A DNA stretch of 64,000 nucleotides, from IMG/VR virus record IMGVR_UViG_3300037108_000012, positions 1 through 64,000 of that record; one strand, written 5' to 3'. How positions within the stretch are numbered: position 1 is the stretch's first letter; each line of letters starts with the position of its first letter. The notes below the pieces were generated by a model. That model had not been told where the DNA came from. It did not search any database and saw only the letters and a list, made by a program, of their open reading frames with translations. Both the position numbers and the translations under genes were made by a program. This DNA comes from a virus. Positions 25,597 through 55,288 of the stretch are shown here, in pieces.

Positions 25597-28500
25597 TTGT
25601 ATAGCGAAAAGATTATCGAAGCCAATCTTGACCTTTTTGAATCGAAAGAAGGTTGGCGACCAGTGCGCCATACCTTAGATCAAGTAAACGAGTTTAAGTC
25701 ATACGTAGATTCTGTAGTGAAAATAGGAAGTAACAGCAAAGGTTCATGGATTGAATCTGTCGCACCTATGACAGAGAAAAGAAGAAAAGAAATATCCCAT
25801 TGGGTAGAAAACGAGCAGGTTCTTTGTGGCTTGGACAGCCTTTATTGGGAACTAAACTATGCGTATGTGTGTTGTCCAGCAGAAGCACCAATATGGATGT
25901 CTGACTTTTCTTTTAAGCCTATCGGTGAAATAATACCAGGAGATGAAATTATAGGTTTTGAAAGAAAACCTTTGAAGAACACGCCTAATGCCACGTTGAA
26001 TTCGCGTGGTCGTCAACGCACCACGAAATTAGAGCACATTGTAAGAACTAAAGTTACATCGGTTCATAAATGTATACGTCCAATAATTAAAGTAACGATG
26101 GAATCGGGAGATGTTATAAGATGCACACCAGATCATTTATGGTCTAGTGGAGAACATGACCGAAGTTTATATCCTTGGATAAAAGCTAGGATAGGTAAAA
26201 CACTCAGAAAAATAGTTGATGTTTATCCAAACGATCCGCCTGATCCATGGACCGCTGCGTGGTTGGGAGGTATGTACGACGGAGAAGGATCACGAGGAAT
26301 GATTTCGCAGTATAAGAGTCATAACCCAGAAGTTCACGCTAAACTCGTTGAATCAATGAAGATGTTCGACTTCAAACAAAAATTTAAGAGCGGTAAAAGT
26401 CACATCGTACAAGAGTATGTAGGGTGGAACGATTACTGTGTTCGCATCAATGGTGAATTAACAGGTAAAGCTAAATTCTTGTGCTGGTGCAAACCTGTAA
26501 GAGCATGGTCGATGGAGAAGCTAATATTTAAGTCAATGAGAGCTTTTGGAGATAAGGTTGTGAATATAGAACCAGATGGAGAAGGTGAAGTTTTTGCACT
26601 TACAACAGAAACAGGAAATTATATAGTATACGGATATGCAAGTCGAAATTGTGACGAAAAAGGGCAGATTTATAAATTTGCACCACGTATGTCTCAAAGG
26701 ATATATAATTCCGTCATTGCGGATTTTGATGAGAAACAAGTGTCTATTGAACTCCTTATACTTAAAGGAAGGCAATTAGGGATCACTACCCAAACTGCTT
26801 TGAAGTTTCTTCACAGAATGCTTTTCCTTCCACATACTCAGGCTATTATGGCCTCAGTTAAAGCGGAAGCATCGCAACTTATCTCAAGGATTATTGATAC
26901 AGCGTATGAAAGGTGTCCATTTTGGTTAGTTCCGTACAGAACCCCAAAAAAGGGATTCTCTAATGGTTCGATTCTTTCTGTACAGTCAGGTATGCAAGCT
27001 ACGGGACTAGCTCAAGGATGGACACCAAGTTGTTTAACACCAGATTCACTTATTCGTGTTGCTGATGGGTTTGTTAAGCCAATCTCCAGCATCACCGAAG
27101 ATGATACTGTAATTACGCACACAGGGAAACTTGTGAAAGTAAAGGCAGCATTCAAAACGAAGCGTGAACCAGATGTGGCACGGTCAATTAAATTATGGGG
27201 ACATCACAGTAGTCTAAAATGTACACCTGAACACCTAATTAAAACTCCTGATGGGTGGGTAGAGGCCGCAGAGATAAGCGTTGGAGATTACGTTGTTCAC
27301 CCGTTACGAAAAATTACAGACGAAATAAAATCGTTTGAAACCTACCTTTATAGAAGAGGTAAAATACGAGAAGATAAGAAAATACGTTTTAACGTCAACC
27401 TTACATCAGGGTTAGGGTATCTGTGTGGTTTTTACCTAGCTGAAGGTACGTGCCACGGAACGACCACCGTGAATAAGAAGTATCTGTCAGAGGTCGTGTT
27501 TAGTATTCATGCAAACGAAATGGAAGACAGAGAAAGGTGTCTACGTAAGTATTTTGGAGAAAAACAAAATATCAATTCCAAAAAGAAGAATAAAGGAAAC
27601 GGGGCAAGCATTACCGTAAGCTGTGCATGGTTCGCTAGATGGATAGCGGAAAACTTCGGCAGGACAGATAAGAAGACAATCCCTGATTGGGTATGGAATG
27701 CCGGGAGAGAGTTTTGCCTTGGATTAGTGAATGGATATTTAGAAGGAGATGGATCAACCTGCGAAGATCGTAATATAGTTATTGCTCCTTCTATTTGTCA
27801 GCAGTTGATTCTTCAAATGCGAGATATGGTAGCGTCTCTTGGTATAGGATGGTCTTCAGTATACTTTAATCCGAAGGAGAAATCTAAGCACGATAAATCT
27901 GTTCGTAAGGACGTATGGAGATTAGCTCTTACTGGACCTACTGCTTATCACTATCGTTCAATGTTTGGATACTTTACTCAACCGCTAAAAAACGGAGAAG
28001 CACGTCATTGGCGCTATGGTGCAGATGGAGAAAGTGTAGAGATTATGGTTGAGTCGGCATTAAATGATTATGCCGATGAGTATTGGGATATAGAAGTAGA
28101 AGACGAGGATCACTCATTCACCACAGATCAATGTGCAGTACATAACTGCGTTCACCTTTCTGAGATAGCGGACATCCCAGACCCTATAAAAACAATCGAA
28201 GAGGGATTATTCCGAGCCGCTCACTCATCCAAGAACCTATTCATGGCTCTTGAGGGAACAGGAGGAGGGAGTACAGGGTGGCTTGCTGACACATGGAGAG
28301 CAGCTAAAGAAGATTGGCCTAAAGGACAATCAAGACTGTTCCCGATGTTTATTCCTTGGCCTATGTGTCCAGAGATTTATCCTCAAGAAGATTGGATTAG
28401 GAAATTTCCTTTAGAAAACAGTTGGAGACCAAGCGAAGTAACGCGAAGACATATTACACGCTGCGAGTCGTATATACGCAACACTCCGTACTTAGCGAGA

Positions 28501-29631
28501 GTGGCTGGTTACGATTATAGAATGCCGATTGAGCAGCAGTGGTTTTGGGAGTTCAATTATAATCAGGCTTGCAAGAATCATACGCAGAAGACATGGGCAT
28601 CGCAAATGCCAGCGGATGACCATGAATCTCTGACAGGAAAACACGATTCTATCTTTGAGCCGGAAGTTATTGGAGAAATAGAAGAAAATATATATGAAAT
28701 TAAAGGAGACGTTAAGAAAAGGATAAACCCTGTACTTGAATATGCTGTGATCGGTCATGACATTGACGAAATATTCTATCCAGACCCTTCAATGATAGAT
28801 AAACATCAACAAGTTATAAATGTAGAATGGAAATCTCACAGAGGTCAGAAGTACGAATGGGAAATGATACCACTTCTACCATTAGACGAGGAGGTGGAAC
28901 GTAATACTATGGACCGTATTCTTATTTATGAGGAGCCAATAAAAGGACAGTATTACTCATGTGGAATTGATACCGCTGATGGTTTAGGAAAAGAGGATGA
29001 GGATAGGACTATCTTATCTGTGGCGAATAACAGGTTTCACGGAGAAGCAGATAAGCAGGTCTGTGAGTTTACTTCTAATAAAGTGAACGCAGCCCAAGTT
29101 GTAGCTTTTGCGGCTTGTTTAGGTGCGCTATATGGACCGTGCTGCCCTGATAGTAGGGGTATGAAGTATGTTATTGAGCAGATCGGAAGGCCGGGAGAAA
29201 CTTGCCAGCATCAGTTAAAGATGATGGGTTTTATGAACCATCACAAGCCAAGGAGATATGATTCAAAGAAAATCAAGCAAGATATGGGAAGTCACGAAGG
29301 ATGGTGGTCTAGTTCGTGGAGTGTTCCTATTCTCATGACACGATTTGTAGAAGCCGTAAACGGTGGATGGTATATTCCGTCGTCTAGGTGGTTGATAGAG
29401 GAACTGAAGACATTAGAGCGTCACGCTACGAGTGGTAAATCGAAGATGGAGCATAGGTCTGGACAACATGACGACAGAGTTAGGGCGGCTGCACAGTCAT
29501 ATTTTACTGCTCATGATATGGATATTTTGACTGAACGCGCTAAGAAGAGGTATGATGTTCCTATTAAGAAGAAGTCGGACCCAAACAAGGGTAGGTGCAT
29601 GAGCAACGCGTTTTCAGTGGGAGAATGGTGA
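25597..29631 (+). CDS. terL: Terminase large subunit, interrupted by two inteins
   Basis: 1344 residues before splicing. Exteins: 1-91, 352-478, 851-1344, giving about 712 residues. Walker A-like LKGRQLGITT is at 389-398, Walker B VHLSEIA at 852-858 directly after intein 2, and the nuclease acidic motif GIDTAD follows near 1126. The C-terminal GQHDDRV is also typical. It powers DNA packaging and cuts concatemers. TTG start. The inteins lie at conserved ATPase sites, so packaging needs splicing. Confidence 0.92.
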   Translation: MYSEKIIEANLDLFESKEGWRPVRHTLDQVNEFKSYVDSVVKIGSNSKGSWIESVAPMTEKRRKEISHWVENEQVLCGLDSLYWELNYAYVCCPAEAPIWMSDFSFKPIGEIIPGDEIIGFERKPLKNTPNATLNSRGRQRTTKLEHIVRTKVTSVHKCIRPIIKVTMESGDVIRCTPDHLWSSGEHDRSLYPWIKARIGKTLRKIVDVYPNDPPDPWTAAWLGGMYDGEGSRGMISQYKSHNPEVHAKLVESMKMFDFKQKFKSGKSHIVQEYVGWNDYCVRINGELTGKAKFLCWCKPVRAWSMEKLIFKSMRAFGDKVVNIEPDGEGEVFALTTETGNYIVYGYASRNCDEKGQIYKFAPRMSQRIYNSVIADFDEKQVSIELLILKGRQLGITTQTALKFLHRMLFLPHTQAIMASVKAEASQLISRIIDTAYERCPFWLVPYRTPKKGFSNGSILSVQSGMQATGLAQGWTPSCLTPDSLIRVADGFVKPISSITEDDTVITHTGKLVKVKAAFKTKREPDVARSIKLWGHHSSLKCTPEHLIKTPDGWVEAAEISVGDYVVHPLRKITDEIKSFETYLYRRGKIREDKKIRFNVNLTSGLGYLCGFYLAEGTCHGTTTVNKKYLSEVVFSIHANEMEDRERCLRKYFGEKQNINSKKKNKGNGASITVSCAWFARWIAENFGRTDKKTIPDWVWNAGREFCLGLVNGYLEGDGSTCEDRNIVIAPSICQQLILQMRDMVASLGIGWSSVYFNPKEKSKHDKSVRKDVWRLALTGPTAYHYRSMFGYFTQPLKNGEARHWRYGADGESVEIMVESALNDYADEYWDIEVEDEDHSFTTDQCAVHNCVHLSEIADIPDPIKTIEEGLFRAAHSSKNLFMALEGTGGGSTGWLADTWRAAKEDWPKGQSRLFPMFIPWPMCPEIYPQEDWIRKFPLENSWRPSEVTRRHITRCESYIRNTPYLARVAGYDYRMPIEQQWFWEFNYNQACKNHTQKTWASQMPADDHESLTGKHDSIFEPEVIGEIEENIYEIKGDVKKRINPVLEYAVIGHDIDEIFYPDPSMIDKHQQVINVEWKSHRGQKYEWEMIPLLPLDEEVERNTMDRILIYEEPIKGQYYSCGIDTADGLGKEDEDRTILSVANNRFHGEADKQVCEFTSNKVNAAQVVAFAACLGALYGPCCPDSRGMKYVIEQIGRPGETCQHQLKMMGFMNHHKPRRYDSKKIKQDMGSHEGWWSSSWSVPILMTRFVEAVNGGWYIPSSRWLIEELKTLERHATSGKSKMEHRSGQHDDRVRAAAQSYFTAHDMDILTERAKKRYDVPIKKKSDPNKGRCMSNAFSVGEW
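25870..26649 (+). mobile_element. Intein 1 in TerL (about 260 aa, LAGLIDADG-type)
   Basis: From Cys92 (or Cys93) to Asn351, followed by Cys352. Block A reads CCPAEAPIWM, block B TPDH with His180, and the end is GYASRN|C. The expected penultimate His is Arg350, which is atypical. One LAGLIDADG-like motif, WLGGMYDGEGS at 222-232, is present. It is placed just before the CDEKGQIYKF extein segment. Confidence 0.88.
27031..28146 (+). mobile_element. Intein 2 in TerL (372 aa, two LAGLIDADG motifs)
   Basis: From Cys479 to Asn850, followed by Cys851. Block A CLTPDSLIRV, block B TPEH with His546, block F YWDIEVEDEDHSF, block G VHN|C. LAGLIDADG motifs LGYLCGFYLAEGT (606-618) and LGLVNGYLEGDGS (708-720) indicate an active-looking homing endonuclease. 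It splits GWTPS|CVHLSEIA, right at the Walker B. Confidence 0.92.
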
Positions 29632-54121: not shown

Positions 54122-54205
54122 ATGAAGTGGTGGCAGCGTATAGGATGGCTGATTACCTGGCCAATCGGCAAGCTGACAGGAATCAGCAGGATCAACAAAC
54201 CATAG
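54122..54205 (+). CDS. Trp-rich microprotein (27 aa)
   Basis: MKWWQRIGWLITWPIGKLTG... basic and Trp-rich, like a membrane-active peptide. AGAGG is 8 nt upstream. Very short, so uncertain. Confidence 0.35.
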   Translation: MKWWQRIGWLITWPIGKLTGISRINKP

Positions 54206-54259
54206 GGGCTGCTGCATGAGGCATGGGGCCCGGCCCCGAATAAGTTGCGCGGTTGATAT

Positions 54260-54344
54260 GGTGGGTTGCCAGAGAGGTTTAATGGCGTGACGTGCAAAGG
54301 TTAAATCCTGTCACGATTCGTTGGTCCGAATCCAACACCCACCA
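54260..54344 (+). tRNA. tRNA-Cys(GCA)-like gene with an 18-nt anticodon loop
   Basis: Acceptor GGTGGGT/ACCCACC (7 bp), D-arm CCA...TGG with loop GAGAGGTTTAA, anticodon stem GTGAC/GTCAC, variable loop GATTC and T-arm GTTGG TCCGAAT CCAAC are all perfect class I features. The anticodon loop begins GTGCAAA (T33, anticodon GCA) but continues 11 nt before the stem closes. No CCA is encoded. An 8-bp inverted repeat GCGCGGTT/AACCGCGC flanks it. Confidence 0.65.
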
Positions 54345-54364
54345 GAGAACCGCGCATTTTCACA

Positions 54365-54394
54365 GCCGCCTGTTCTCATGTGCAGGCGGCTTTT
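54365..54394 (+). terminator. Intrinsic terminator after the tRNA
   Basis: GCCGCCTG and CAGGCGGC form an 8-bp stem around 10 nt, followed by TTTTGTT. Rightward. It ends the lysis/tRNA transcript and abuts the leftward HNH gene. Confidence 0.75.
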
Positions 54395-54395
54395 G

Positions 54396-54866
54396 TTATT
54401 CAAAACAAGCAAATTCTCCAAACAACTCTTTGGCCTTCTCGCAATATCTGAGATGAGCCTCTAGCTCAGAAGAGAAAGTTCCGAGACTGATTGCTTTACC
54501 ATTATGAAAAATGGTTGACCAATATCTTTTACCTTGCCTGTATGCCCCTTTTAGTGATCCGTCGTTTCTCTTTCCTTTAGAGTTTCTGTTATTTTGTGAT
54601 ACTGTTGCAATACGAAGATTAAATCTCCTATTATCTAAGGTATTATGATTTATATGATCCCCTTTGAGGGGAGAATCTTTTTCTATCCCAAGGATTATTC
54701 TGTGCATACGAATAGATGGACTATACCCTCCGTTTCTTTTATCGTTTCTCACGGCATAAAATAAGCCCCTTCTTGAATGCGCGTACCATTTCCACTGCAT
54801 CAGCCAATCGTAATCAGCGGCATCAACAATGGCAACCTTTATAACAAGGAGATGAGATGAATTCAA
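54396..54866 (-). CDS. HNH/AP2-type homing endonuclease, 5'-truncated (156 aa)
   Basis: HRIILGIEKDSPLKGDHINH then NTLDNRRFNLRIATVSQNNR is a clear HNH core, and KGAYRQGKRYWSTIFHNGKA is an AP2-like DNA-binding domain. The usual opening (IPLTQG-K-VALVDxxDYEWL) is cut: only VAIVDAADYDWL remains, and the only start codon is TTG 54866 inside the lysozyme start region. Likely inactive or starting further inside. Confidence 0.75.
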   Translation of the reverse strand: MNSSHLLVIKVAIVDAADYDWLMQWKWYAHSRRGLFYAVRNDKRNGGYSPSIRMHRIILGIEKDSPLKGDHINHNTLDNRRFNLRIATVSQNNRNSKGKRNDGSLKGAYRQGKRYWSTIFHNGKAISLGTFSSELEAHLRYCEKAKELFGEFACFE

Positions 54867-55288
54867 GCCAAAACTGCCGGAATCAGATAATGCAATGGGA
54901 AGGCACCAAATTGTCTATCTATTCAGATGCAAATGGTTTTCCAACAGTGGGGATAGGCCACAAACTCACGCCCGCAGAGATTGCCACGCACGCCTATGCG
55001 AATGGCATCACAACCGGGCAGGCTGTGATTCTCTTCGACGATGACATTGCGAGCTTCGATGCGCAGATCAATTCGCTCTTCGACGATAGACATTTGACGC
55101 AGGGGCAGTTCGATGCTCTTGTAAGTTTCTGCTACAACAATGGGTTTGGGCGACTGCGCACGATGCTCTCGCATGGGCTGGCGAATGTGCCGAACGAGTT
55201 GCCGCGTTGGGTGTACGCCGGGACGGTAAAGCTCCCCGGCCTGGTCACGCGGCGTGCGCAAGAGGTTGCGTGGTGGAATCAGAAGTAA
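54857..55288 (+). CDS. GH24 (T4-type) lysozyme, endolysin
   Basis: 143 residues. The catalytic Glu sits in MQWEG, followed by SIYSDANGFPTVGIGHKLTP, with the Asp and Thr of the E-8-D-5-T triad. ALVSFCYNNGFG is typical too. It hydrolyses peptidoglycan for release. No signal peptide, so it needs a holin. AAGGAG precedes the ATG; this site overlaps the start of the opposed HNH gene. Confidence 0.92.
   Translation: MNSSQNCRNQIMQWEGTKLSIYSDANGFPTVGIGHKLTPAEIATHAYANGITTGQAVILFDDDIASFDAQINSLFDDRHLTQGQFDALVSFCYNNGFGRLRTMLSHGLANVPNELPRWVYAGTVKLPGLVTRRAQEVAWWNQK

What the first reader, a model, noticed from the sequence alone, without database searches (positions are those of the whole stretch)
54260..54344. 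tRNA-Cys-like gene with an 11-nt insertion in the anticodon loop
All other arms are perfect, including anticodon stem GTGAC/GTCAC and a 5-nt variable loop. The loop is 18 nt, GTGCAAA plus 11 more. A three-base mini stem (AGG/CCT) can form in the insert. It could be a tiny intron, a variant that resists anticodon nucleases, a tRNA mimic, or a dead gene.
Basis: partly seen in the sequence, partly recalled or inferred. Interest (0 to 1): 0.75.

Follow-up and report, generated by a model that had tools for sequence, protein, structure and literature searches.

The report
Odd tRNA-Cys-like element in a phage
Just before its lysozyme gene a soil phage carries an RNA that folds like a cysteine tRNA but has its anticodon inside an oversized 18-base loop and lacks the base that cysteine charging needs, so it is most likely a retired tRNA rather than a working decoder, although a tRNA-mimic role is not excluded.

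Summary
Window 54260-54344 (+) folds as a full cloverleaf with every stem Watson-Crick. No match to that descriptor arose in 4,696 dinucleotide shuffles, and a tRNA-Cys covariance model scores it 44.8-47.3 bits (next best in 40-64 kb: about 9). It is tRNA-Cys derived: its nearest relative found is an ordinary phage tRNA-Cys(GCA) with a 7-nt loop.

The 'insertion in the anticodon loop' is not the only reading. The 85 nt also align without gaps to a class II (long variable arm) tRNA-Cys model (55.8 bits); that fold has an 8-nt loop and a weaker anticodon stem, about 4-5 kcal/mol less stable.

Either way it lacks U73 (A73 instead), has no encoded CCA, and has G32 and C55. It caps an older hairpin just before an intrinsic terminator. 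A relative with 94% identical flanks has 29 unrelated bases there instead.

Best explanation: a tRNA-Cys gene acquired in a variable spot of the lysis region that no longer decodes, persisting as a structured non-coding RNA or recent relic. Decoy/mimic, functional class II tRNA and splicing remain open. No second copy of the element was found, so selection cannot be tested. Two Acinetobacter phage loci carry comparable tRNA-like elements before terminators.

The parts
54205..54237 (+). Conserved hairpin GGGGC...GCCCC upstream of the element
   Evidence: Shared by L002, L003, L004, L009 upstream of lysozyme
54246..54254 (+). 5' strand of the enclosing 9-bp stem (TGCGCGGTT)
   Evidence: Perfect complement of 54348-54356; 7 bp of it shared with L004
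54260..54344 (+). tRNA-Cys-like element: acceptor, D, anticodon, variable, T; ends with A73, no CCA
   Evidence: Descriptor 0 in 4,696 shuffles; CM R1 47.3 bits, R2 44.8 bits, R3 55.8 bits
54268..54286 (+). D arm GCCA-GAGAGGTTTAA-TGGC (11-nt loop)
   Evidence: Same 17-mer core in phage tRNA-Cys L231/L233
54287..54314 (+). Anticodon arm: GTGAC/GTCAC with 18-nt loop; GCA at 54294-54296; AGG/CCT mini-helix 54298-54300/54307-54309
   Evidence: Alternative class II pairing: TGAC 54288-54291/GTTA 54300-54303 with 8-nt loop, plus variable arm AATC 54304-54307/GATT 54315-54318
54320..54336 (+). T arm GTTGG-TCCGAAT-CCAAC (C55 in place of U55)
   Evidence: C55 in 6 of 338 reference tRNAs
54348..54356 (+). 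3' strand of the enclosing stem (AACCGCGCA)
54364..54391 (+). Intrinsic terminator AGCCGCCTG...CAGGCGGCT + T run
   Evidence: conserved in L004
54396..54866 (-). HNH endonuclease gene between terminator and lysozyme; absent at this place in L004
   Evidence: PF13392, PHROG 99
54857..55288 (+). Phage lysozyme/endolysin gene
   Evidence: PF00959 E 2.8e-27, PHROG 7

Best explanation
This is a tRNA-Cys-derived RNA that no longer decodes. Shown: a complete cloverleaf with tRNA-Cys sequence features sits on top of a pre-existing hairpin, immediately before an intrinsic terminator, in a variable spot between lysis-region genes; the closest syntenic relative has 29 unrelated nucleotides in its place. 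Inferred: a phage or cellular tRNA-Cys gene was captured at this spot, its anticodon arm was then remodelled (11-nt insertion into a class I tRNA, or re-pairing of a class II tRNA-Cys so that the 3' strand of the anticodon stem now comes from the former variable arm), and the discriminator changed to A. It is probably transcribed with the lysis-region operon and stays as a stable folded RNA. If it does anything, it acts through its shape (RNA stability, processing, terminator presentation) rather than by inserting cysteine.
For: tRNA-Cys origin: the D arm and GATTCGTnGGTnCGAATCC match L231, a normal phage tRNA-Cys. It scores 44.8 bits with a model that excludes L231, in the range of genuine class II tRNA-Cys (L271 44.5, L298 43.6, L257 40.9). 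Loss of decoding: A73, while U73 plus GCA are the major bacterial Cys determinants (PMC9976931) and 68 of 72 reference tRNA-Cys here have T73; no CCA; G32; C55 in 6 of 338; GCA lies in an 18-nt loop or a 6-nt bulge. Recent, local origin: flanks 94% identical in L004, which lacks the element; absent from L002, L003, L009 and from the other loci of related phages searched with the Cys model (27 loci); no exact copy of the loop and no close relative by the D-arm pattern elsewhere in IMG/VR.
Against: Every stem pair is Watson-Crick, which is unusual for a decaying gene: only 126 of 338 reference tRNAs have a fully Watson-Crick acceptor plus T stem. That suggests either very recent loss or selection on the fold. 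A73 does occur in 2 of 72 viral tRNA-Cys (L250, L313). There is no expression data, and only one copy, so no covariation test.
Confidence: 0.5

Rival explanations
1. Selected tRNA mimic or decoy: the cloverleaf with an enlarged anticodon arm is kept because it titrates or resists tRNA-acting proteins (anticodon nucleases, RNase P, synthetases, modification enzymes) or protects or processes the lysis-region transcript, without decoding.
For: All stems intact with a non-decoding anticodon arm; fold z -4.9; placed before a terminator and inside a 9-bp stem. Acinetobacter phage loci L232 and L234 carry tRNA-like elements before a terminator with a D arm identical over 17 nt and an abnormal anticodon region. 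Phage tRNAs with altered anticodon loops proposed to evade nucleases are known (PMC10264068).
Against: Single copy, no conservation, no expression data. The basal stem predates the element (it is in L004), so it is not a feature of it. L232/L234 homology beyond the D arm is not shown.
Confidence: 0.2
2. Functional class II tRNA-Cys: the true fold has a 4-bp anticodon stem (TGAC/GTTA), an 8-nt loop and a 4-bp variable arm (AATC/GATT), and it decodes UGY or shifts frame.
For: Gapless end-to-end alignment to the class II tRNA-Cys model, 55.8 bits; D-loop length 11 and variable length 16 are the commonest pair among viral tRNA-Cys parsed; nearest class II relatives L298, L271, L257.
Against: That fold is 4-5 kcal/mol weaker. 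In the model's 7-nt-loop register three of five anticodon pairs are broken. True class II tRNA-Cys gain about 28-33 bits from R3 over R2, L231 (class I) gains 8, this element 11. A73, G32, C55 and no CCA.
Confidence: 0.12
3. Tiny intron: the extra nucleotides are removed after transcription, leaving a standard 7-nt loop.
For: The extra bases lie next to the canonical 37/38 intron position.
Against: An 11-nt element is far too short for a group I intron (own knowledge). No bulge-helix-bulge. No RNA ligase, RtcB or splicing endonuclease found in the 72.9 kb record. The product would still have A73.
Confidence: 0.03
4. Assembly or sequencing error in a metagenome contig that turned a normal tRNA-Cys into this form.
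For: One record only, from a metagenome.
Against: The extra bases are not a homopolymer or a clean tandem repeat; the paired strand GTGAC/GTCAC and all other stems are intact; A73 and C55 would need separate errors.
Confidence: 0.1

Closest known systems
Phage tRNA-Cys(GCA), class I, in L231/L233 (IMG/VR 3300042554_001476, 3300043773_000923)
   Same: D arm and flanking bases identical over about 20 nt, GCA, variable loop GATTC, similar T arm
   Different: Normal 7-nt loop, U73, encoded CCA, lies in a 27-tRNA array
Viral class II tRNA-Cys(GCA) with long variable arm (L298, L257, L271 and about 50 others)
   Same: Length, 11-nt D loop, T stem GTTGG/CCAAC (L298, L257)
   Different: Anticodon stem of 4-5 pairs closing a 7-nt loop, U73 in nearly all
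Phage tRNAs with anticodon-loop mutations proposed to evade anticodon nucleases (PMC10264068)
   Same: Phage tRNA with altered anticodon loop
   Different: Those are described as anticodon-loop mutations in tRNAs proposed to keep translation going; here there is an enlarged loop and loss of the Cys discriminator
selC* tRNA-Cys and allo-tRNAs (PMC7609411)
   Same: Non-canonical bacterial tRNAs with a tRNA-Cys anticodon or long arms
   Different: Those have 8/4 or 9/3 acceptor branches; this has 7/5 and its anomaly is in the anticodon arm
Acinetobacter phage tRNA-like elements in L232 and L234
   Same: D arm identical over 17 nt, no CCA, A at position 73, abnormal anticodon region, directly before an intrinsic terminator
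   Different: About 104 nt, 17-nt variable region, different acceptor and T arm; sequence homology outside the D arm not shown

Membership tests
Canonical tRNA (Rfam RF00005) | Score at or above gathering (29 bits) | tested here: not met
   No match in the window or in the record at E<=10; Infernal filters may drop the long insert
Canonical tRNA (Rfam RF00005) | Four-stem cloverleaf | tested here: met
Canonical tRNA (Rfam RF00005) | 5-bp anticodon stem closing a 7-nt loop | tested here: not met
   18-nt loop, or 8-nt loop in the class II fold
tRNA-Cys | Sequence/structure similarity to tRNA-Cys | tested here: met
   R1 47.3, R2 44.8, R3 55.8 bits
tRNA-Cys | GCA anticodon 3' of U33 | tested here: met
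   U33-GCA-A37 present at 54293-54297, but inside an enlarged loop or bulge
tRNA-Cys | U73 discriminator | tested here: not met
   A at 54344
tRNA-Cys | Charged with cysteine | not testable with these tools
   Needs aminoacylation assay
Class II tRNA-Cys | 7-nt anticodon loop with a paired stem and separate variable-arm hairpin | tested here: not met
   Three of five anticodon pairs broken in register; a 4-bp stem with 8-nt loop is possible but weaker
Intron-containing tRNA (archaeal/eukaryotic type) | Bulge-helix-bulge at the exon-intron junctions | tested here: not met
   One 6-nt 5' bulge, 3-bp helix, 6-nt loop, no 3' bulge
Intron-containing tRNA (archaeal/eukaryotic type) | Splicing endonuclease/ligase available | tested here: inconclusive
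   None in the 72.9 kb record; record may be partial and the host is unknown
Prophage attachment-site tRNA fragment | Identity to the 3' part of a host tRNA gene | tested here: inconclusive
   Only generic T-arm matches to tRNA-Lys in 396 Acidobacteriota genomes; host not established; 5' half also present, which argues against

The most novel reading that the evidence does not exclude
Some phages turn captured tRNA genes into non-decoding tRNA mimics with enlarged anticodon arms, placed directly before a terminator in a late or lysis-region transcript, where they act as decoys for tRNA-targeting defences or as transcript-end structures. The window element and the Acinetobacter phage elements in L232/L234 would be independent examples. 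In L232/L234 one 7-bp stem pairs in both sequences although three pairs differ on both sides.
Probability: 0.12. Interest if true: 0.75.

Novelty: new variant of a known kind. Interest (0 to 1): 0.4.

Why it matters
If it is only a relic, it is a clear snapshot of how a phage tRNA is retired and reused as RNA structure, and a caution that an 'anticodon-loop insertion' can also be read as a re-paired class II tRNA. If it is selected, it would be a phage-encoded tRNA mimic, relevant to the open question of why phages carry tRNAs and to tRNA-targeting immunity.

Tried and rejected
Homologues of the element by BLAST in phages and plasmids: only chance or generic matches; the best phage hits examined (L043, L044) are an unrelated hairpin in lambdoid phages. 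Exact loop pattern in IMG/VR: none. Host tRNA copy or attachment site: not found in 396 Acidobacteriota genomes. My first idea that the body was tRNA-Tyr/Ser-like (from the D arm) was dropped after L231 showed the same D arm in a tRNA-Cys. Relaxed ARAGORN (-ps70) reports many false genes and was not used as evidence. ARAGORN intron calls in related tRNA arrays (L212, L215, L216, L218) were not cleanly cloverleaf or were not examined further.

Full report
WHAT IS THERE. The window is part of a 72,887-bp IMG/VR record with no end repeats, so the genome may be incomplete. No stem contains a mismatch or a G-U pair.

IS IT CHANCE? No. A cloverleaf descriptor (7+3+5+5 pairs, tRNA-like D and T loops, U33, loop 7-40 nt) finds only this element in the window and nothing in 4,696 dinucleotide shuffles, both strands. 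The enclosing 117 nt fold with z = -4.9, and none of 200 shuffles folds as well. A covariance model of nine tRNA-Cys gives 47.3 bits (next best in 40-64 kb 9.0). A model rebuilt without the closest relative gives 44.8 bits, in the range of three genuine viral class II tRNA-Cys under the same model (40.9-44.5). ARAGORN default and Rfam RF00005 miss it, presumably because of the long loop.

WHAT IT DESCENDS FROM. The D-arm 17-mer occurs in five other IMG/VR contigs. Two (L231, L233) hold an ordinary tRNA-Cys(GCA) with the same bases from U8 to C26, the same GATTC-G before the T stem, a 7-nt loop, U73 and CCA. Independent tRNA-Cys genes found by another pattern (L271, L298, L257) share close variants of the D arm. 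So tRNA-Cys ancestry is well supported.

HOW THE ANTICODON ARM SHOULD BE READ. Two folds compete. (b) A class II tRNA-Cys: 4-bp stem TGAC/GTTA, 8-nt loop GTGCAAAG, variable arm AATC-CTGTCAC-GATT; about -25.7 with those pairs enforced. The whole 85 nt align without a gap to a class II tRNA-Cys model (55.8 bits), and D-loop 11 / variable region 16 is the commonest length pair among the viral tRNA-Cys parsed. However, in that model's register three of five anticodon pairs are broken. True class II tRNA-Cys gain about 28-33 bits from the class II over the class I model, L231 gains 8, and this element 11. I favour fold (a) on energy and perfect pairing, but ancestry through a class II tRNA-Cys that re-paired its anticodon stem is as likely as a simple 11-nt insertion. 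The RNA ensemble also contains a shifted CGUG/CACG register (centroid).

WHY IT PROBABLY DOES NOT DECODE CYSTEINE. The discriminator is A73. U73 and GCA are the major bacterial Cys determinants (PMC9976931), and 68 of 72 reference tRNA-Cys here have T73; two (L250, L313) do have A73. There is no CCA (not decisive, since many genes lack it). Position 32 is G; position 55 is C (6 of 338 reference tRNAs). GCA is in an 18-nt loop or a bulge.

CONTEXT. The element sits on the tip of a 9-bp stem TGCGCGGTT/AACCGCGCA, downstream of a hairpin (54205-54237) conserved in four related contigs, and 20 nt upstream of an intrinsic terminator (54364-54391). Next come an HNH endonuclease gene on the other strand (54396-54866) and the lysozyme gene (54857-55288). 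In the nearest syntenic relative (L004/G300) the flanks are 94% identical, but the 97 nt from 54253 to 54349 are replaced by 29 unrelated nt, and the terminator runs straight into the lysozyme gene. L009 has neither stem nor terminator; L002 and L003 have other inserts. So this is a variable spot in the lysis region, and the basal stem is shared with a relative that lacks the tRNA-like element. The major head protein has at least 108 relatives in IMG/VR; several large ones (120-143 kb) carry about 30 tRNAs, so tRNA capture is common in this phage group. No regular tRNA was found in the 72.9 kb record.

MECHANISM. Shown: sequence, fold potential, position, absence in relatives, loss of a major Cys determinant. 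Inferred: co-transcription with the lysis-region operon and persistence as a folded RNA. Most likely a retired tRNA-Cys (0.5). A selected mimic or decoy (0.2), a functional class II tRNA (0.12), an assembly error (0.1) and an intron (0.03) remain. Splicing is disfavoured: no bulge-helix-bulge and no RNA ligase, RtcB or splicing endonuclease in the record, with the caveat that the record may be partial. Because only one copy exists, selection on the enlarged loop could not be tested.

POSSIBLE PARALLEL. Two Acinetobacter-phage-like loci (L232, L234) carry tRNA-like elements of about 104 nt with the same D-arm 17-mer, A73, no CCA, and a terminator directly after; one scores 30.3 bits for RF00005. 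Related Acinetobacter phages have ordinary tRNA-Arg and tRNA-Ile genes in the corresponding region. Between the two, a 7-bp stem (CATATAC/GTATATG versus TATTAAC/GTTAATA) is preserved through three double changes read from the alignment, although the predicted lowest-energy folds do not use it. This is a lead for the mimic reading, not proof.

VERDICT. A real, well-formed but non-canonical tRNA-Cys-like element; new variant of a known kind; interest 0.4.

Noticed in passing
L250-L369 (IMG/VR), e.g. L264, L284, L293, L298, L300: About 50 distinct viral tRNA-Cys(GCA) genes have long class II variable arms (12-22 nt), nearly all with U73 and a normal 7-nt anticodon loop. One full-text search (four papers, titles and abstract starts only) did not obviously describe this.
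   Followed up: partly
L232:6173-6281 and L234:684-793 (-): tRNA-like elements in Acinetobacter-phage-like contigs: normal D, T and acceptor arms, no CCA, abnormal 50-nt anticodon/variable region with two mutually exclusive hairpins that both keep pairing, directly before a terminator; related phages have tRNA-Arg/Ile genes nearby.
   Followed up: partly
54205-54237 and L002, L003, L004, L009: Conserved structured motif GGGGCTGCYGCRTGAGGCATRGGCYCGGCCCCGAA between lysis-region genes and the lysozyme gene; function unknown.
   Followed up: partly
25597-29631: Terminase large subunit appears to carry an intein with a LAGLIDADG domain.
   Followed up: no
L217 (1054-1469): Several tRNA-Leu genes of a related large phage are short (77-79 nt), i.e. 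appear to have lost the long variable arm typical of tRNA-Leu.
   Followed up: no
L239:2049-2136: Acinetobacter phage vB_AbaS_qsb1 gene annotated tRNA-Ile(TAT) is 88 nt, long for a class I tRNA.
   Followed up: no
L002 position 290-300: TTTGCGCGGT recurs about 150 nt downstream of the conserved hairpin in L002, resembling the 5' strand of the window's basal stem, without a matching 3' strand seen.
   Followed up: no
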